This document shows, piece by piece, positions 4,202 to 10,963 of a stretch of DNA of 64,000 nucleotides (position 1 is its first letter; every line of letters starts with the position of its first letter). The translations under genes were made by a program, and so were the position numbers. The stretch comes from an uncultured Alphaproteobacteria bacterium (GTDB lineage: Bacteria; Pseudomonadota; Alphaproteobacteria; Micropepsales; Micropepsaceae), in the NCBI GenBank assembly GCA_902826695.1, contig CADEFU010000001.1, positions 359,764 to 423,763 on the forward strand, read 5' to 3'. The notes below the pieces were generated by a model. The model saw nothing but the letters and a program-made list of their open reading frames with translations. It was not told the origin of the DNA and did not search any database.

Positions 4202-6382
4202 TTACCAGTAGAGCTTCGCGCCGATGCCCGCGCGGTAGCCGGAGATGTCTTTGCCCAGACTCTCGTTGTAACCGCCGTCGAGGTAGAGGGCGAGGTTCTC
4301 GTCAAGATAGGCCTGCATGCCGGCATCGAGCGAGAGGAGCTCGTCGTTCGTGTCGGAGACGACGGTGTTGACGCCACCGGTCACCGTGTTCACGCCGTCG
4401 GACAAGACCGTCGAGTAAGCGACCTGTGCCCACGGACGGATCGAACCGCCCCAGGTCACGCCGTCGAAGCGCAGCGCGCCCTTGGCCTCAATGAGGCCGG
4501 TGTCTTCGGTGACTCTGAACCCGAAGCAAGTGTCGCCGCAATTTGTGCCGTCATAGCTGACGGTACCGATCAGCTTCACAGCGAGCGGTTCAAGGCCGAG
4601 GCCGACACCGGCTTGCGCCGAACCGATGAAGCCGCCCGATGATGCCTCATTGGATGAGCCGGCCAGCGTGCCGTTGTACATCCAATCCATGTCAGCGTAG
4701 CCGGCCGAAATGTTGAGGAAGAAGGCCGAGCTGGTGAAGGCTGCGTAGGCTTCGATCACGCGCGCATCGCCGTCGAGCTTGGCTGGGCCGGCAGTTGCGA
4801 TGAAGTCGCTGGTCGAGCTGCCGAAGCCGCCCGACACGCCACCGAACCAACCGGCGCCCATGCGCCAGTCCATGCCGCCGGTCGTACAGCTGAAGTCTTG
4901 GTCTTGTTCCACGCCAGTATCGGCGCCGAATGACGAGTTGCCCTGACGATAGCCGAACCAAGCGCGGCCGTAGGTGGCGCCCTTGGGGCTGTCGGGGATG
5001 CGCTGCTCGTCGCGGAAGCAGCCGCGGATCAGGTTCTGACCGGCCGAGAGCAGTGCCGCGTGACCGGTAAGTTCGTCGCGCGCGGCGGACTGCAAGAAGT
5101 AGCCGTCGTCATTGGCGACGTTGTAGTTCGGCACGTGGGTCAAGAAATATTGATAGGCGCCGGCAACGAGCCAACCGGGCTGCACAAAGTTGTTTGCGGC
5201 GCTTGTGCCGCCGACGCGGATAACTTGGATACCATTGCCGGTCGTCGGTGCGCCCGCTGCGGTCGAGAGGAACGAGGCGACTGCAAATGTCGTCGTGCCC
5301 GTGACGTTGCCGTCGATGTTGAGGAAGTCGTGAGTCGTGCCCGGCGTGCCGCCCGCGGGGGCTGCCGCATCGATGTTGATAAACATCCCGACATAGGCGT
5401 TCGTGCCGGTGGATGCGTAGTTGCCGGTGACATTGATCGTGCCCATGTCTTGGCCGGGATTCTCGCGCGTGTCGCCGGGCGGAACCGAGGTGTTGCCCGG
5501 TTGCAGGCCGCCGTTGCTGCTGACGTCGCCGTTGATCGTCGCGTTGCCGGTGAGGCGGCCCGCGGTGATCGTGAGGTTGTTCAGGTTGTAGTTCGCGACG
5601 GATTTGGATGTTATTTCGCCGCCGTTGATCGTCACCGACGACGAGTTGTCGATCGCCCCAGCGTTCTGAATCTCAAGCGTGCCGCCAAGGACGGTGGTCG
5701 CGCCCGTGTACGAATTGTTGCCGGTGAGGATCCACTTGCCTGCAGCCAGTACGGAGAGGTTGCCGGCTCCGCTGATCAGACCCGAGAAGGTGTTCTCGGC
5801 GCCGCCAACCGTGAATGTGCCACCGATCAGGTCGACTGTACCTGCGCCGGAGAGAGCGCCAATGCGCTCATTCTCGTAAACTTCAAGTAGGCCGCCCGCA
5901 GCTACTGTGACAGCGCTGCCGTTGCCGATTATGTCATTGGCGTCGCCAGTTGCTGTGGATGCGCTGTTCAGGCGAAGGATGCCGCCGCTGTCGATGGTCC
6001 AAATCAAGTTCCGGGAGGCGTCAAGATTGTCGCCGTCGTTCAGGATCAACGTCGTGCCATTCCGCACGATCGCATTTTCGAAGTTTTGGAATTGGGCTGT
6101 ATTGGCCGTCGTGAACGCAAGGTTCGTGAATGTCAGGCTCTCGGGGCCGGGGCTGATCCCAAACTCGAGCGTGTCGTCGCCCGCTTGGCCGTCGTGGTTG
6201 TCGGCCAAGTTGGCGTTGACGAGAGAGATAACGCAGGTGTTGTTGCCAGTCGTTGTTGCGCAAGACGCCGCGGACGCGGCGGGCGTTAGCGCGACCAGCA
6301 AGCCCATTGACGCTGTCGCCATAAGGGCCGCACGAAGGTTCGCAACTACAAAGGGAACGGCACGCGATTCCGCGGTCGTCAT
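4202..6382 (-). CDS. Autotransporter with beta-strand-repeat passenger
   Basis: 726 residues, type V secretion. The start at 6382 has AAGGAG 8 bases upstream; an ATG 18 bp earlier lacks this. A hydrophobic signal peptide ends near an Ala-rich ASAASC site (about residue 41). The passenger is Gly/Asn/Thr-rich and carries autotransporter-associated strand repeats such as LSGAGNLSVLAAGKWILTG and NNSYTGATTVLGGTLEI, typical of a beta-helix. The last 270 or so residues form the outer-membrane barrel: alternating aromatic strands and a final aromatic residue (KLYW). Four cysteines lie in the barrel region, unusual but not unique. Likely adhesin or surface protein; ligand unknown. Followed by a strong terminator, so monocistronic. 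Confidence 0.88.
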   Translation of the reverse strand: MTTAESRAVPFVVANLRAALMATASMGLLVALTPAASAASCATTTGNNTCVISLVNANLADNHDGQAGDDTLEFGISPGPESLTFTNLAFTTANTAQFQNFENAIVRNGTTLILNDGDNLDASRNLIWTIDSGGILRLNSASTATGDANDIIGNGSAVTVAAGGLLEVYENERIGALSGAGTVDLIGGTFTVGGAENTFSGLISGAGNLSVLAAGKWILTGNNSYTGATTVLGGTLEIQNAGAIDNSSSVTINGGEITSKSVANYNLNNLTITAGRLTGNATINGDVSSNGGLQPGNTSVPPGDTRENPGQDMGTINVTGNYASTGTNAYVGMFINIDAAAPAGGTPGTTHDFLNIDGNVTGTTTFAVASFLSTAAGAPTTGNGIQVIRVGGTSAANNFVQPGWLVAGAYQYFLTHVPNYNVANDDGYFLQSAARDELTGHAALLSAGQNLIRGCFRDEQRIPDSPKGATYGRAWFGYRQGNSSFGADTGVEQDQDFSCTTGGMDWRMGAGWFGGVSGGFGSSTSDFIATAGPAKLDGDARVIEAYAAFTSSAFFLNISAGYADMDWMYNGTLAGSSNEASSGGFIGSAQAGVGLGLEPLAVKLIGTVSYDGTNCGDTCFGFRVTEDTGLIEAKGALRFDGVTWGGSIRPWAQVAYSTVLSDGVNTVTGGVNTVVSDTNDELLSLDAGMQAYLDENLALYLDGGYNESLGKDISGYRAGIGAKLYW

Positions 6383-6680
6383 CCGAGACTCCTTACCCAC
6401 ACCTTAAGGCGGCTTTGGTTAGCTCTAACTCTGGGGCGATTTCATCGGAACCGGCACCGACAAGCAACGTAAAGCCGGGGGGATGGCAAACGCTGCGGCG
6501 CGAATCCCAACGGCTGTCACCGGAACGCTTCACCCCTAGCGGTTGTGCGGGCGGACTTGGATAACCACTATTTGGTTAGGCCTGACGTTTACGACGTCAC
6601 GGCAAGGCGGTTGTGCTGGCGATTCTGCGAGTGATTCCAAACGATTGGCTGGGACTGGCCTCTCCGGTCACACGTAAGGC
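6383..6680. other. 298-bp stretch without a gene
   Basis: Separates the autotransporter start from the end of the small-membrane-protein operon, both on the minus strand, so it should hold the autotransporter promoter. It contains the AAGGAG ribosome site at its left end. I see no convincing -35/-10 pair, no credible small coding frame and no strong hairpin. Confidence 0.5.
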
Positions 6681-6926
6681 TCAACCGGCGCGCCACAGTT
6701 TGCGGCCGGCTCTGAAAACGGCGTAACCGCCCGCGGCTGCGCCGCCGGCAACCGCCAGCACGAAGACGATCGAGCCGATTGCTCCGCCGAACGAACCGGC
6801 TTCAGTGAAGACCGTTGTGAGCACGCCAAGCGCGCACATACCGCAGAGCGCGATCAAGAGGACACCGGCGCTCATGAGAGCAAGGCCGAAGAAGCGCTTG
6901 AGCGAGTCTGTGCCTGGTCCGGTCAT
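6681..6926 (-). CDS. Small membrane protein, tandem paralogue 3
   Basis: 81 residues with two predicted membrane helices (about residues 13-37 and 46-68) and a basic C-terminus. It shares a signature with the two preceding genes: FGLALMSAGVLLIALCGMC aligns with their GLxLIxxGVLWxAxxGLC, and the ending xAGRKLWRAG aligns with their GRxLRP. It overlaps the previous gene by ATGA (6923-6926) and is the last gene of the operon led by the HGG and radical SAM genes. No characterised family was recognised. Likely an inner-membrane partner or subunit; possible homo- or hetero-oligomer with its paralogues is inference. Confidence 0.75.
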   Translation of the reverse strand: MTGPGTDSLKRFFGLALMSAGVLLIALCGMCALGVLTTVFTEAGSFGGAIGSIVFVLAVAGGAAAGGYAVFRAGRKLWRAG

Positions 6927-7177
6927 GCTTTTGGTCTTAGTGCGCGGCCGACAATGTAGACGACGAATCCGATGCCGGCGGAGAAGCCACCGACCAAAAG
7001 GACCATGGGCGTGATGCTCAATACCTCTCGTGCATCGGCTGGGCCCTCCGTCAAGAGCGTGGCGAAGAACGCAGCGGTGCACAGACCGGAGGCTGCCATC
7101 CACAAGACGCCCGCGGTGATGAGGATGAGGCCGATGATCCGGCGGATCGAGGCGGGCGGCGGTGCGCTGTCGGTCAT
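6923..7177 (-). CDS. Small membrane protein, tandem paralogue 2
   Basis: 84 residues, two membrane helices (about 14-42 and 56-78). Contains RRIIGLILITAGVLWMAAS followed by GLCTAAF, the shared signature of this set, and ends VGRALRPKA. Start at 7177 chosen because its ATG overlaps the stop of the upstream paralogue (7174-7177, ATGA); the frame continues upstream without family similarity. The conserved cysteine in GLC is kept in all three copies. Function unknown; genetic linkage to the radical SAM gene is the only clue. Confidence 0.78.
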   Translation of the reverse strand: MTDSAPPPASIRRIIGLILITAGVLWMAASGLCTAAFFATLLTEGPADAREVLSITPMVLLVGGFSAGIGFVVYIVGRALRPKA

Positions 7178-7410
7178 TGCGTGGGCCTCAACCAACGGCC
7201 TGCTGCATAGAGGATGCTGCCGATAATAGCAGACGGCACGGCGACGATGAAGATCGTGCTGATATCGCCGGAGGTGATGCCGTAGGCTTGGACGACAAAG
7301 GCGACGAAGACAAGCGTGCAGAGGCCGGTGGTCGCGAGCCAGAGCACGCCAACGACGATGAGGGCGAGGCCGATAAACCGAGTTGGCGTGTTCGGGTGCG
7401 GGTTGTCCAT
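7174..7410 (-). CDS. Small membrane protein, tandem paralogue 1
   Basis: 78 residues, two membrane helices (about 12-40 and 48-70). Contains RFIGLALIVVGVLWLATTGL then CT, and ends AAGRWLRPTQ, matching the two downstream copies in both the first helix and the C-terminal motif. Begins 36 bp after the preceding unrelated small membrane gene and is coupled to the next copy by an ATGA overlap. Three copies in a row argue for local duplication. No known family was recognised. Confidence 0.78.
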   Translation of the reverse strand: MDNPHPNTPTRFIGLALIVVGVLWLATTGLCTLVFVAFVVQAYGITSGDISTIFIVAVPSAIIGSILYAAGRWLRPTQ

Positions 7411-7446
7411 CGAAGTGCCGTGTTTGTTGGGGCTGAGGCTCGTCGA

Positions 7447-7665
7447 TCATTGTTTTCGCTGGAGCCAGAGACCCACGGTGATGCCCGCTATGGCTAGCGC
7501 ATCTACGATGCACATAAAGGTAAGATCATTCGTCCAACGTCCTCCTGTGCCAACTACTAGGACAAAGAATGGCCCCCAGCCGTATATCAAGAGAACAACA
7601 GCGCCCAATGCAATGAACACCTTGCCCACGGCAGCGTCCGGTAGTTTGCTTGCTGGCTCATTCAT
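7447..7665 (-). CDS. Small membrane protein coupled to radical SAM gene
   Basis: 72 residues with two hydrophobic segments (about 14-38 and 50-67) separated by a short polar loop (GTGGRWTND). It lacks the GVLW/GLC signature of the three genes downstream, so it is a separate type. The ATG at 7665 overlaps the radical SAM stop by 4 bp (ATGA), so its translation should follow that of the enzyme. No homologous family recalled. A membrane tether or partner of the enzyme is a reasonable but untested guess. Confidence 0.68.
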   Translation of the reverse strand: MNEPASKLPDAAVGKVFIALGAVVLLIYGWGPFFVLVVGTGGRWTNDLTFMCIVDALAIAGITVGLWLQRKQ

Positions 7666-9092
7666 CGACGGATACCGGCCGCTTGGCCCACCGCGCCCTC
7701 GCGGTAGAACGTGTTGAAGGTGTCGAAGGGGTAGATTTTGCCGTCGGGTTCGACGAAGTGCACGCAGCTTCGTTTCACGCCGCCGAGGTCGAAGTTGAAG
7801 CGGTCCATGAACTGCACGATGACGACGCGGAACGTGTGTGCGTATGCGATCTCTTGCGGGACGGCCGCTTCGGGTAGGCAGCAAAGGACGGCGGCGAGCT
7901 TTTCCGACGTGTCGGCGGCGGCGGTCGAGAGCGAGAGCAGGTCGAACATGCGTTTGCGCAGTTCGGGGAAGTTCTCGAACGTCACGGTGTTTGGGGCCGC
8001 TTCGACCAACACCTCGCGCGGGATCATCGACGTGATTGGCGCCACCTGCTTTCCGTTGCGCAGCCCGTAGCCGATCGAGATGGCGTCGGGGTTGCAGGGG
8101 AGCGGGATCATGTCTTCGAGGGCGAAGACGCCGGCCTTTGCCACCTCGCGGCGGACGTCGGAGAGCAGCACGCGGTTCTTGCGCGGATCGAAGCCGTCGT
8201 TGCGGCCGGCGTCTTGCACGGGCTGCAGCGTCACGCCGCGCACGCAGCGCCATTCCAGCGCGTGGCGGACGATGTCGGGCACCTCTTCGTCGTTCACGCC
8301 TTTCTTTACGGTGACGACGAGTGTGGTCGAGATGTTGTGTTTCTCCAACGCTTCGAGGGCTTGTTGGCGCACGCTGCGCAGGTCGGCGCCGCGCAGGTTC
8401 ATCAGCGCGTCGCGCTTCAGCGAGTCGAACTGCAGGTAGACTTCGAAGCGCGGCATGTAGGTCGCAAGGCGTGCCGCGAACTCAGGCTCGCGCGCGATGC
8501 GGATGCCGTTCGTGTTGATCATCAGGTGGCGGATCGGGCGGCGCTTGGCGGCGTCGAGGATTTCGAAGAACTGCGGATGGATCGTGGGCTCGCCGCCCGA
8601 GATTTGCACGAGGTCGGGCTCGCCTTCGCTCTGCACCAGCGTGTCCATCATCGCTTCGATGGTGACGAGGTCGCGGTGGCCGGTGCGCTTTACCGATGAA
8701 TCGGCGAAGCAAACGGGGCAGGAGAGGTTGCAGGCTTCGTTCACCTCCAGGATCGCGAGGCACGAGTGCTGTTCGTGATCGGGGCAGAGGCCGCAGTCAT
8801 AGGGGCAACCGCGCTCGGTGTGCGTTTGAGGTGCTAGCGGGCGGTCGCCGGGTTTGAGGTAGTCCTTGCAGCTCTTCCAATAGGTCGCGTCGCTCGAGAT
8901 CAACGTCTTTTGTACGCCGTGTTCGGTGCAACGCTTTTGGTAGAAGACGTCATCACCCTCGATCAGGATTTTTGCGGGCACGAGTTTGAGGCAGGTCTCG
9001 CAGAGGCTCGTCGTCTGCGCGTGGAAGAGGTAGGGCGCCGACTTGCGGATGGGGAGGGCGGTGGTTGCGGTGAGATCGAGGGGCTTGTTCAT
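7662..9092 (-). CDS. COG1964 radical SAM enzyme, tetraether-synthase (Tes)-like
   Basis: 476 residues. N-terminal CETCLKLVPAK ... RCTEHG (about 31-59) is a C-x2-C/C-x2-H metal site of rubredoxin type. GCPYDCGLCPDHEQHSC (about 94-110) is a cysteine cluster that may bind an auxiliary Fe-S cluster. ACNLSCPVC (about 119-127) is the CX3CX2C radical SAM motif, followed by QISGGEPT. Conserved C-terminal elements include PLPCNPDAISIGYG and RSCVHFVEPDGKIYPFDTFN. This order is that of COG1964, the family of archaeal MJ0619/Tes, which joins lipid chains through C-C bonds at terminal methyl carbons. In a bacterium the substrate is unproven; a lipid chain fits the context (ceramidase-like and Lgt-like genes upstream, membrane proteins downstream). 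Coupled by ATGA on both sides. Confidence 0.85.
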   Translation of the reverse strand: MNKPLDLTATTALPIRKSAPYLFHAQTTSLCETCLKLVPAKILIEGDDVFYQKRCTEHGVQKTLISSDATYWKSCKDYLKPGDRPLAPQTHTERGCPYDCGLCPDHEQHSCLAILEVNEACNLSCPVCFADSSVKRTGHRDLVTIEAMMDTLVQSEGEPDLVQISGGEPTIHPQFFEILDAAKRRPIRHLMINTNGIRIAREPEFAARLATYMPRFEVYLQFDSLKRDALMNLRGADLRSVRQQALEALEKHNISTTLVVTVKKGVNDEEVPDIVRHALEWRCVRGVTLQPVQDAGRNDGFDPRKNRVLLSDVRREVAKAGVFALEDMIPLPCNPDAISIGYGLRNGKQVAPITSMIPREVLVEAAPNTVTFENFPELRKRMFDLLSLSTAAADTSEKLAAVLCCLPEAAVPQEIAYAHTFRVVIVQFMDRFNFDLGGVKRSCVHFVEPDGKIYPFDTFNTFYREGAVGQAAGIRR

Positions 9093-9454
9093 GCGTTGAT
9101 TGTAGCACTTCCCCGGGTAGTACAGGCGTTCGTGGCTGTGAGACCACGCGGGGTGGGGGATACCCCGGCGTGATTTGGGCGAACAACCCCATGTACCCTG
9201 GCGTCAAGAGCCGAAACGAGCTGGCGCGCTTCGCGGACGAGCCCGCGCAAGGCGTCCGCTTCGCGCAACCAAGCGCTGCCCCGGGTGCCGTGCTTCCATG
9301 CGTTGCGATTGCCCCCGCGAGCTCCGCCGCGCGCGCCGTGAAAGCGGCAAACGCGATAGCCCCGAACCGCCGGGGCCCGGCACGGCCGCTGCGTTCGCTT
9401 CGAGCGGGCATGGCAACGCGGTGCTGCTTGGAGCCTTCTTACGCTTGAGCACAT
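9089..9454 (-). CDS. HGG-type small basic protein (CxARSKRTxxPCRAPAV family)
   Basis: 121 residues. RCHARSKRTQRPCRAPAV then CRFHGARGGA and GNRNAWKHG (about residues 13-58) is a conserved small-protein signature common in Alphaproteobacteria, with Cys and His residues spaced like a small metal site. Function is not established; many relatives sit near phage or mobile DNA, but no such genes are here. Start at 9454 preferred over a GTG at 9484 because AAAGGA lies 7 bases upstream. First gene of the radical SAM operon, coupled to it by an ATGA overlap; the C-terminal 40 residues look unstructured and may reflect extension up to that overlap. Confidence 0.75.
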   Translation of the reverse strand: MCSSVRRLQAAPRCHARSKRTQRPCRAPAVRGYRVCRFHGARGGARGGNRNAWKHGTRGSAWLREADALRGLVREARQLVSALDARVHGVVRPNHAGVSPTPRGLTATNACTTRGSATINA

Positions 9455-9569: not shown

Positions 9570-10286
9570 TCAGGTGGTGCTCGTCGATCGACGGATCATG
9601 AGGAATCCATAGATCACGAGGCCCAAGCACATCAGATGGAAATGATTTAGCGGTCCCACCAGGGGCGGATAGGGCTTGAGGAATTCCCAGACAAAGCGTT
9701 GGGCGCCGTAGGCGATGGCTAGCCAGTAGAAGCCATCGCGCATGGCCCACGGTTGGCGGCTGCGCAGGCCCGAGATGAACGCGGCGAGAAAGAGGGCCAT
9801 TGAGAGTGACTCGTAGACCTGCACGGGGTGGCGGCCGATGCCGTCGCCAAGGTCTACGGCCCAGGGTAATGGTGTCGGCGTGCCGAACGTGTGGTCAGGG
9901 AGGCCCGCGAACAGGCAGCCCCAGCGACCGACCGCGACGCCTGCCGCGAACGGGCCGGCGAAGACGATGCCGGTGGACATGCGGATGCCGCAGGCGAGTT
10001 TGTAGAGCTCGACGGCAACGATGGCGCCGACGAGAGCGCCTGCCACCGAGTGCGCGAGGGCGAAGACGGCTTGGCCGACGAACGTGAACGTGCCGGCGAG
10101 ATACGCGCCCGCAATGGCGCCGACGGCGAGGCTGGCGAAGTAGCCGCCGTCGGCGACGCGCGCGACCTCGGCCGTCGCTTCCTTCAGACGCCAACGATAG
10201 AGCGCGACGCCCACTGCCATGCCCGCACCCCACGCCAGCGCATCGAAGGCGAGGTGGTAAGCGGGGTTCGTGGGGATCGCGATCAT
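9570..10286 (-). CDS. Short Lgt-like prolipoprotein diacylglyceryl transferase family protein
   Basis: 238 residues, about six to seven membrane helices. The segment VGRWGCLFAGLPDHTFGTP then PWAVDLGD and RHPVQVYESL (about residues 121-158) matches the Lgt core (GRxGN ... PW ... HPxQxYE), and AHSVAGALVGA (near 80-90) matches the region of Lgt that carries the essential His. True Lgt transfers diacylglycerol from phosphatidylglycerol to the lipobox Cys. This copy is shorter than the usual 260-300 residues and has Cys in place of the usual Asn of GRIGN, so it may be a paralogue with another acceptor. Coupled to the ceramidase-like gene by ATGA (10283-10286). Confidence 0.82.
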   Translation of the reverse strand: MIAIPTNPAYHLAFDALAWGAGMAVGVALYRWRLKEATAEVARVADGGYFASLAVGAIAGAYLAGTFTFVGQAVFALAHSVAGALVGAIVAVELYKLACGIRMSTGIVFAGPFAAGVAVGRWGCLFAGLPDHTFGTPTPLPWAVDLGDGIGRHPVQVYESLSMALFLAAFISGLRSRQPWAMRDGFYWLAIAYGAQRFVWEFLKPYPPLVGPLNHFHLMCLGLVIYGFLMIRRSTSTT

Positions 10287-10963
10287 GCGGCTTTTGCAGC
10301 AGCTTCCGTGCTTCGGCCGGTTTCGAGCGTGATCAGCGCTTGCATAACTGCGAACGCTGCTGCCGAAAGGAAGACGTGCCACAGGAAGTGCGTGCCCATG
10401 GGAACGGTGTCGCACATGCTGCCGTCAATCGAACGGAAGGTTAGCGCGGCCATTGCGGAGGTTATGGCGATTCCTCCGATCAGCGCGGCTTTTTTGGACG
10501 CGGCGTAGCTGCGGACGATGAGCCAGATCGCGATCGTGATGATGAACGGTGCCATCACGGACCAGCCGCCGCGCACGGGTAGGTCGGCGAAGCGCACAGC
10601 GACTGCGAGCGCGATGGCGCCAGCGGTCACGAGGACACCCTCGCGCCACGGGGCGACGTAGCGTGCCCACAAGACGATTGCGACGGCTACGAAGACCAAC
10701 GCTGGGAGAACATCCAACGTTAATGCCCAGCGCGTTCGCAGGCCGTGCCACAGGATGCTCCCGAGGCCGTTCGTAATCAGCAGCGCGCAAAGGGCGTAGA
10801 ACGACAGTGCGTTGGGTGTCCGGCGCATGACGCTGACGAGCGCGAAGAGGCCGAAGACGACGATGATGCCGCTGGAGATGGCGTTCGCGGGTTCGACGGG
10901 GAAGATGCCGGTGATTGCTGCAGGGGTCTCGCAGTACTGCGGGCCGAACGGTGGGGTGCTCAA
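10283..10963 (-). CDS. Alkaline ceramidase-like (CREST family) membrane hydrolase
   Basis: 226 residues, seven predicted membrane helices. CREST-superfamily landmarks are present: YCETPAAITGIFPVEPANAI (about 10-29) with the conserved Glu/Asn pair, NGLGSILWHG (about 65-74) with Ser and His, an Asp near 84 (TLDVLP), and GTHFLWHVF (about 191-199) with the His-x3-His pair. These residues build the zinc site in ceramidases and related amide hydrolases. Substrate could be a ceramide or another N-acyl lipid; sphingolipids do occur in some Alphaproteobacteria. Translationally coupled to MOSC upstream and the Lgt-like gene downstream. Confidence 0.8.
   Translation of the reverse strand: MSTPPFGPQYCETPAAITGIFPVEPANAISSGIIVVFGLFALVSVMRRTPNALSFYALCALLITNGLGSILWHGLRTRWALTLDVLPALVFVAVAIVLWARYVAPWREGVLVTAGAIALAVAVRFADLPVRGGWSVMAPFIITIAIWLIVRSYAASKKAALIGGIAITSAMAALTFRSIDGSMCDTVPMGTHFLWHVFLSAAAFAVMQALITLETGRSTEAAAKAA

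What the first reader, a model, noticed from the sequence alone, without database searches (positions are those of the whole stretch)
7447..9454. Tetraether-synthase-like radical SAM enzyme in a coupled bacterial operon
The 476-residue protein at 7662 has, in order, a rubredoxin-like C-x2-C/C-x2-H site, a CPYDCGLCPDHEQHSC cluster and the CX3CX2C radical SAM motif, plus C-terminal elements that match the COG1964/MJ0619 family as I recall it. Archaeal members (Tes) form C-C bonds between inactive lipid methyl ends. Here it is translationally fused, by 4-bp overlaps, to an HGG-type small protein and a small membrane protein. A bacterial lipid-coupling or lipid-modifying operon would be notable.
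Basis: partly seen in the sequence, partly recalled or inferred. Interest (0 to 1): 0.68.

Follow-up and report, generated by a model that had tools for sequence, protein, structure and literature searches.

The report
Bacterial tetraether-synthase-like cassette with Lgt relative
A bacterial relative of the archaeal enzyme that welds lipid tails together turns out to be tied, across many bacterial phyla, to a membrane enzyme related to the one that attaches lipids to proteins plus a tiny membrane protein; this points to an undescribed lipid-modifying system in ordinary aerobic bacteria whose product nobody has yet identified.

Summary
The 476-aa protein at 7662-9092(-) is a full-length relative of archaeal tetraether synthase (Tes, MJ0619/GDGT-MAS): profile E=6e-91 to PDB 7tol/7tom, and its predicted fold matches end to end (TM 0.79). 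The rubredoxin, N-cluster and radical SAM ligands are all kept. It is not a Tes orthologue: it scores below the NCBIfam Tes and TrsS cut-offs, sits in a separate bacterial clade, and the C-terminal cluster site is rebuilt (Tes C438, M439, C455, Y459, C470 replaced; own Cys 333, 404, 405, 443). Bacterial Tes homologues were already reported (Zeng 2022). What I found no record of is the cassette. An Lgt-like gene (9570-10289) accompanies it in 84 of 87 loci, the other three being cut by contig ends. In 299 Pseudomonadota genomes the same 10 carry both genes and 289 neither. A small two-to-three-helix membrane protein follows in 66 of 83 loci (3.5% at control ORF ends). The Lgt relative keeps the phosphatidylglycerol-activating residues but always lacks the lipoprotein-acceptor His103. 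The HGG ORF is an inserted dispersed element, not a partner. Best reading: a lipid-tail-modifying cassette acting on phosphatidylglycerol-derived lipid; tail coupling is plausible but unproven.

The parts
7662..9092 (-). Tes-like radical SAM protein, 476 aa: rubredoxin-like site, N-terminal [4Fe-4S] site, radical SAM core, altered C-terminal auxiliary domain
9570..10289 (-). Lgt-like membrane protein, 239 aa; R143, E202, Y235, R239 (E. coli numbering) kept, H103 lost, N146 to Cys; conserved upstream partner
7447..7665 (-). small two-helix membrane protein 1, 72 aa; ATGA overlap with the radical SAM gene at 7662-7665
7174..7410 (-). small two-helix membrane protein 2, 78 aa, with a TM cysteine (TTGLCTL)
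6923..7177 (-). small two-helix membrane protein 3 (ASGLCTA); ATGA overlap with protein 2 at 7174-7177
6681..6926 (-). small two-helix membrane protein 4 (LCGMCAL); ATGA overlap with protein 3 at 6923-6926
9089..9454 (-). HGG-type ORF in an inserted dispersed repeat between the Lgt-like and radical SAM genes; not part of the conserved cassette
10283..10963 (-). ceramidase-family (PF05875) membrane protein overlapping the Lgt-like gene; not found next to the cassette in relatives

Best explanation
This is a three-part lipid-modifying cassette: an Lgt-like membrane enzyme, a Tes-like radical SAM enzyme and one or more tiny hairpin membrane proteins. SHOWN: the genes travel together across phyla; the radical SAM protein has the full-length Tes architecture; the Lgt relative keeps the residues of the phosphatidylglycerol-activating centre but has lost the histidine needed for lipoprotein transfer. 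INFERRED: the Lgt-like protein binds phosphatidylglycerol and either presents it or transfers its diacylglyceryl group to a non-lipobox acceptor (a second lipid, or the membrane cysteine of the small protein). INFERRED: the radical SAM enzyme draws the saturated acyl chain of that lipid into a Tes-like tunnel, abstracts hydrogen from an unactivated carbon with the 5'-deoxyadenosyl radical, and functionalises it. Joining two chains, as Tes does, is the single most likely outcome (my estimate about 0.35 within this explanation); methylation, C-S bond formation or dehydrogenation are the alternatives. The confidence given is for 'acts on a lipid tail together with the Lgt-like partner'.
For: Full-length homology to GDGT-MAS (E=6e-91) and end-to-end predicted fold match (TM 0.79; the next hits share only the radical SAM core, TM 0.38 or less). 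All rubredoxin, N-cluster and radical SAM ligands, plus R234, Q290 and R297 at the 5'-dAH site and closing loop, are invariant in 45 homologues. The Lgt-like gene lies beside the radical SAM gene, nearly always directly upstream on the same strand, in 84 of 87 loci, the rest being cut by contig ends. Phylogenetic profile: the same 10 of 299 Pseudomonadota genomes carry both genes, 289 neither. The Lgt subfamily keeps R143, E202, Y235 and R239 in 39/39 and loses H103 in 39/39; in E. coli R143/R239 form the PG-activating centre, and H103, in the motif proposed to bind the lipobox peptide, tolerates no substitution tested (PMC4728403). A separate canonical Lgt exists in the genome. A small TM protein follows in 66/83 loci against 3.5% at other ORF ends.
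Against: No lipid product, no mutant and no biochemistry. The Tes C-terminal [Fe4S4] site, whose cluster is thought to carry the C-S intermediate, is not conserved residue by residue. Well-studied host genera (Bradyrhizobium, Paenibacillus, Caulobacter) are not known to me for membrane-spanning lipids. The Foldseek search with the Lgt model did not return the solved E. coli Lgt among the listed hits, so partner homology rests on sequence profiles. Lgt works from the periplasmic side while Tes is a soluble enzyme, so how they would share a substrate is unexplained.
Confidence: 0.62

Rival explanations
1. The small membrane protein is the substrate. The Lgt-like enzyme or the radical SAM enzyme modifies its membrane cysteine (lipidation, thioether or crosslink), so the cassette is a protein-modification system of lipoprotein or RiPP type.
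For: The small ORF directly follows the radical SAM gene, often with an ATGA overlap (38 of 83); 68 of 68 predicted small proteins contain a cysteine past residue 15 and within the two large clades it is at a fixed TM position; actinobacterial plasmid cassettes also carry Lgt-family plus small TM proteins ending ...G-x-CTGLN. An Lgt lacking the usual acceptor His would fit an unusual acceptor.
Against: A shared [G/A]-x-C motif across unrelated small proteins is not clearly above shuffled expectation (10 of 16 clusters against a mean of 6.6, maximum 13). The protein that overlaps the radical SAM gene in this window lacks the motif. 17 of 83 loci have no detectable small protein. Tes has a lipid tunnel and no peptide-binding element is known to me for this family.
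Confidence: 0.17
2. It belongs with the TrsS / methyltransferase-associated branch and works on a cofactor or small soluble substrate, not on membrane lipid.
For: Slightly higher score to NCBIfam TrsS (305-330 bits) than to Tes (264-297) in this clade. Haloarchaeal and Mycolicibacterium relatives sit next to methyltransferases.
Against: All scores are far under the TrsS cut-off of 490 bits; no methyltransferase is conserved next to this clade; the near-universal partner is a membrane enzyme of a lipid-binding family.
Confidence: 0.12
3. It is a true bacterial tetraether synthase that makes brGDGT-like membrane-spanning ether lipids as the archaeal enzyme does.
For: Full-length homology and fold; Zeng et al. 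proposed this for bacterial homologues (PMC8941075).
Against: Below the Tes cut-off; Tyr459, Cys438, Cys455 and Cys470 replaced throughout and Met439 in most rows; separate clade; a later survey notes that the bacterial homologues' activity is unconfirmed (PMC11868695).
Confidence: 0.07

Closest known systems
Tetraether synthase Tes / GDGT-MAS (MJ0619, PDB 7tol/7tom; NCBIfam NF045702)
   Same: Four-domain architecture in the same order; rubredoxin, N-cluster and radical SAM ligands with matching spacing; predicted fold along the whole chain.
   Different: 269 bits against a 450 cut-off; C438, C455, Y459 and C470 replaced, M439 mostly so; new invariant or near-invariant Cys 333, 404, 405 and H109/C111; Lgt-like partner that I did not find described for Tes; separate clade.
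Bacterial membrane-spanning lipid synthase Mss
   Same: Radical SAM enzyme reported to share the Tes catalytic architecture by model superposition (PMC13274423).
   Different: Reported together with Ger/PlsA, largely from anaerobes; no Mss sequence was at hand, so relatedness was not tested.
Radical SAM (seleno)protein TrsS (NCBIfam NF045646)
   Same: Best single NCBIfam match (305 bits) over nearly the whole length.
   Different: Cut-off 490 not reached by any of seven proteins tested; no methyltransferase conserved beside this clade.
Prolipoprotein diacylglyceryl transferase Lgt (PF01790, E. coli 5azb)
   Same: PF01790 in 39/39; R143, G154, E202, Y235, R239 kept.
   Different: H103 lost and N146 replaced by Cys in 39/39; shorter; the genome carries a separate canonical Lgt.

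Membership tests
Tes / GDGT-MAS | Rubredoxin-type site C-x2-C-x20-C-x2-H | tested here: met
   C31, C34, C55, H58; 45/45
Tes / GDGT-MAS | N-terminal [Fe4S4] ligands C73, C77, C80 + His | tested here: met
   C96, C100, C103, H106; 45/45
Tes / GDGT-MAS | Radical SAM CX3CX2C and Tes full-length fold | tested here: met
   C121, C125, C128; TM 0.79 to 7tom over 489 columns
Tes / GDGT-MAS | Met439 and Tyr459, reported as completely conserved in 1000 archaeal homologues | tested here: not met
   window V426 and F446; Met in only 12 of 45 and Tyr in none of 45 bacterial rows
Tes / GDGT-MAS | C-terminal [Fe4S4] cluster domain with its cysteines | tested here: inconclusive
   C438, C455, C470 lost; C456 kept; other conserved Cys 333, 404, 405 could make a different site; model confidence is low at 387-411
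Tes / GDGT-MAS | Curated equivalog score of at least 450 bits | tested here: not met
   269 bits; other proteins tested 168-297
Tes / GDGT-MAS | Makes a C-C bond between saturated lipid chain ends | not testable with these tools
   needs enzymology and lipidomics
TrsS | Curated equivalog score of at least 490 bits | tested here: not met
   305 bits; others 237-330
Lgt (functional lipoprotein transferase) | PF01790 domain and PG-activating residues R143, R239 | tested here: met
   39/39
Lgt (functional lipoprotein transferase) | Essential His103 in the HGGL motif | tested here: not met
   V/A/L/E/I in 39/39
Mss | Sequence relatedness to Mss | not tested

The most novel reading that the evidence does not exclude
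A widespread, undescribed lipid system of ordinary bacteria: a non-lipoprotein Lgt relative moves diacylglycerol from phosphatidylglycerol onto a new acceptor (a second lipid, or the membrane cysteine of the tiny partner protein), and the Tes-like radical SAM enzyme, with a rebuilt auxiliary cluster, then joins or functionalises its saturated tail ends, giving a membrane-spanning or protein-tethered lipid in mesophilic aerobes.
Probability: 0.25. Interest if true: 0.9.

Novelty: new variant of a known kind. Interest (0 to 1): 0.6.

Why it matters
Hundreds of bacterial Tes homologues were reported in 2022 with no tested function, and they are cited as candidates for the bacterial brGDGT lipids used as climate proxies. 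Showing that one large clade is locked to an Lgt relative with an altered acceptor site and to a tiny membrane protein gives that clade a concrete, genetically testable context. It argues against simple annotation as tetraether synthase and points to a phosphatidylglycerol-dependent reaction. If a coupled lipid is found, membrane-spanning lipids would extend to common aerobic mesophiles such as Bradyrhizobium, Caulobacter and Paenibacillus.

Tried and rejected
HGG protein as operon partner: rejected, dispersed element. MOSC, DUF1289 and ceramidase-like genes as cassette members: rejected; MOSC/DUF1289 were seen only in close relatives and the ceramidase-like gene in none of them. Viral relatives: none found. 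A universal [G/A]-x-C motif in the small proteins: not significant across clusters. Foldseek with the Lgt model: no hit with E<=0.001 and E. coli Lgt not among the 50 listed; kept as a caveat, since sequence profiles do link them. Searches from an acidobacterial centre and annotation of the Cylindrospermum record were not possible, so archaeal Tes is represented in the tree by MJ0619 only and the deep branching is unsure (long branches). Literature searches for a link between Lgt and Tes-like enzymes found none, but only open-licence papers are held.

Full report
WHAT WAS CLAIMED AND CHECKED. The ORF list and sequence confirm a 476-aa ORF at 7662-9092(-), a small membrane ORF at 7447-7665 overlapping it by ATGA (7662-7665), and an HGG-type ORF (9089-9454 from its likely ATG) overlapping its start by ATGA (9089-9092). 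The protein matches Pfam Zn_ribbon_HMPTM (23-67) and Radical_SAM. Its best NCBIfam matches are TrsS (305 bits, cut-off 490) and Tes (269 bits, cut-off 450), both under their curated cut-offs. In the PDB its only full-length relative is GDGT-MAS/Tes from M. jannaschii (phmmer 5.5e-62; profile 6e-91 across the whole chain).

ANATOMY OF THE RADICAL SAM PROTEIN. Using the ligands published for MJ0619 (PMC9433317) and an alignment in which the published numbering checks out, every rubredoxin ligand (C9, C12, C33, H36), every N-cluster Cys (C73, C77, C80) with the following His, and the radical SAM triad are kept in all 45 bacterial rows compared, as are R210, Q268 and R275 near 5'-dAH. The C-terminal cluster domain is different: C438, C455 and C470 become I/V, S/T and D/E; labile Met439 becomes V, S or I in 33 of 45; Tyr459 becomes F, I or M; C456 is kept. 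The bacterial clade has its own invariant or near-invariant C333, C404, C405 and C443, and H109/C111. AlphaFold2 (mean pLDDT 84, low at 387-411) gives a model whose closest solved structures are 7tom/7tol over the whole length (TM 0.79), while the next hits share only the radical SAM core (TM 0.38 or less).

NEIGHBOURS: THE REAL PARTNER. In relatives of the same genus and family the HGG ORF and the ceramidase-like gene are absent beside the cassette, but an Lgt-like gene (window 9570-10289) always lies beside the radical SAM gene. A scan of genome contigs returned 80 loci from Alpha-, Beta- and Gammaproteobacteria, Bacillota (Paenibacillus, Brevibacillus, Aeribacillus), Cyanobacteriota, Melainabacteria-type lineages, Bacteroidota (Chitinophaga), Acidobacteriota (Chloracidobacterium), Verrucomicrobiota and Planctomycetota (phyla as printed). 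In these and seven further relatives, an Lgt-like gene was found near the radical SAM gene in 84 of 87 loci: directly upstream on the same strand in nearly all, about 1.9 kb upstream in L093 and downstream in the divergent L023. In the three without it the radical SAM ORF begins within 330 bases of the contig end. No other gene is conserved across phyla at that level. In 299 Pseudomonadota genomes searched with each protein, exactly the same 10 genomes have both and 289 have neither, and the two genes lie close together in all 10.

THE LGT-LIKE PROTEIN. All 39 members match PF01790, and their profile finds E. coli Lgt 5azb (4.3e-13). The window's genome has a separate canonical Lgt. Aligned to that canonical copy, R143, G154, E202, Y235 and R239 are kept in 39/39; N146 is Cys in 39/39, R246 is Lys in 39/39, and His103 of the HGGL motif is absent in 39/39. 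In E. coli, R143 and R239 form the centre that activates phosphatidylglycerol; no H103 substitution tested complements, and the HGGL region was proposed to bind the lipobox peptide (PMC4728403). Inference: the phosphatidylglycerol end of the reaction is kept and the acceptor is changed, so this is probably not a lipoprotein transferase. Caveat: Foldseek with the confident model (pLDDT 93.7) did not list the E. coli Lgt structure. I did not test how common N146C is in PF01790 at large.

THE SMALL MEMBRANE PROTEIN. An ORF of 50-170 aa with at least two predicted TM segments starts within -24 to +60 bases of the radical SAM stop in 66 of 83 loci, 38 of them with the exact ATGA overlap; the same test at the ends of other long ORFs gives 45 of 1304 (3.5%). 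The window carries four such ORFs in a row (7447-7665, 7174-7410, 6923-7177, 6681-6926), the last three joined by ATGA overlaps. Every predicted small protein has a cysteine beyond residue 15 and within the large clades it is fixed in a TM segment, but a common motif across unrelated clusters is not clearly above shuffles.

THE HGG ORF. Its sequence recurs in four places in this genome (one with a stop) and at other places in two relatives. DNA similarity of about 73-80% covers roughly 260-330 bases of the stretch between the Lgt-like and radical SAM genes, and relatives have about 30-60 bases there instead. It is an inserted dispersed element.

RELATIVES AND NAMES. A maximum-likelihood tree puts the 45 core bacterial rows in one group (100/98) apart from MJ0619, but long branches make the deeper order unsure. 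Outside this group, haloarchaeal and one Mycolicibacterium homologue are paired with a methyltransferase. Actinobacterial plasmid homologues (Mycobacterium branderi, M. avium) have an Lgt-family protein and small TM proteins beside the radical SAM gene but have lost the N-cluster cysteines. So the Lgt link is wider than this clade, while the N-cluster is dispensable elsewhere.

WHAT IS KNOWN. Bacterial Tes homologues, including many in Proteobacteria and Acidobacteria, were reported and proposed for brGDGT synthesis (PMC8941075); a later survey states that their function is unconfirmed (PMC11868695). Mss is the tested bacterial membrane-spanning lipid synthase (PMC13274423); I had no Mss sequence to compare. 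Searches of the held open-licence papers found no report of the Lgt-like/Tes-like pairing.

MECHANISM COMMITTED TO. The cassette modifies the hydrocarbon tail of a phosphatidylglycerol-derived lipid by radical SAM chemistry, with the Lgt-like protein supplying or transferring the lipid and the hairpin protein acting as acceptor or scaffold. Shown: linkage, co-occurrence, architecture, ligand conservation, loss of the lipoprotein acceptor residue. Inferred: lipid substrate, order of steps, identity of the acceptor, chain coupling as outcome. I do not file it as a member of Tes, because defining residues and the curated cut-off were tested and not met; that it works on lipid tails like Tes remains the best explanation.

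Noticed in passing
window 9089-9454 and G000:C2:388080-388376, C6:158492-158767, C10:22962-23273: HGG-type ORF is a dispersed repeat in this genus, about 73-80% alike at DNA level, here inserted inside a conserved operon; one of the four copies in this genome has a stop.
   Followed up: partly
window 10283-10963: A ceramidase-family (PF05875) gene overlaps the Lgt-like gene in this genome only; relatives have other genes there (G007 carries a 368-aa ORF that looks agmatine-deiminase-like, L014 2712-3818; not tested).
   Followed up: partly
window 6681-7665: Four small two-helix membrane proteins in tandem; three are clearly paralogous, and the one overlapping the radical SAM gene lacks the GxC motif of the other three.
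   Followed up: partly
L136-L138, L140-L142: Haloarchaeal and Mycolicibacterium relatives pair with a methyltransferase; M. branderi and M. avium plasmid relatives pair with an Lgt-family protein and small TM proteins but lack the N-terminal cluster cysteines.
   Followed up: partly
L023 6728-9056: A TrsS-like homologue in the same family of genomes (31-32% identical) has a divergent Lgt-like gene (Lys at the Arg143 position) downstream and a 97-aa membrane ORF between them.
   Followed up: partly
window 4202-6400: Large ORF with autotransporter-like repeats next to the cassette, matched in one close relative (54.7% identity).
   Followed up: no
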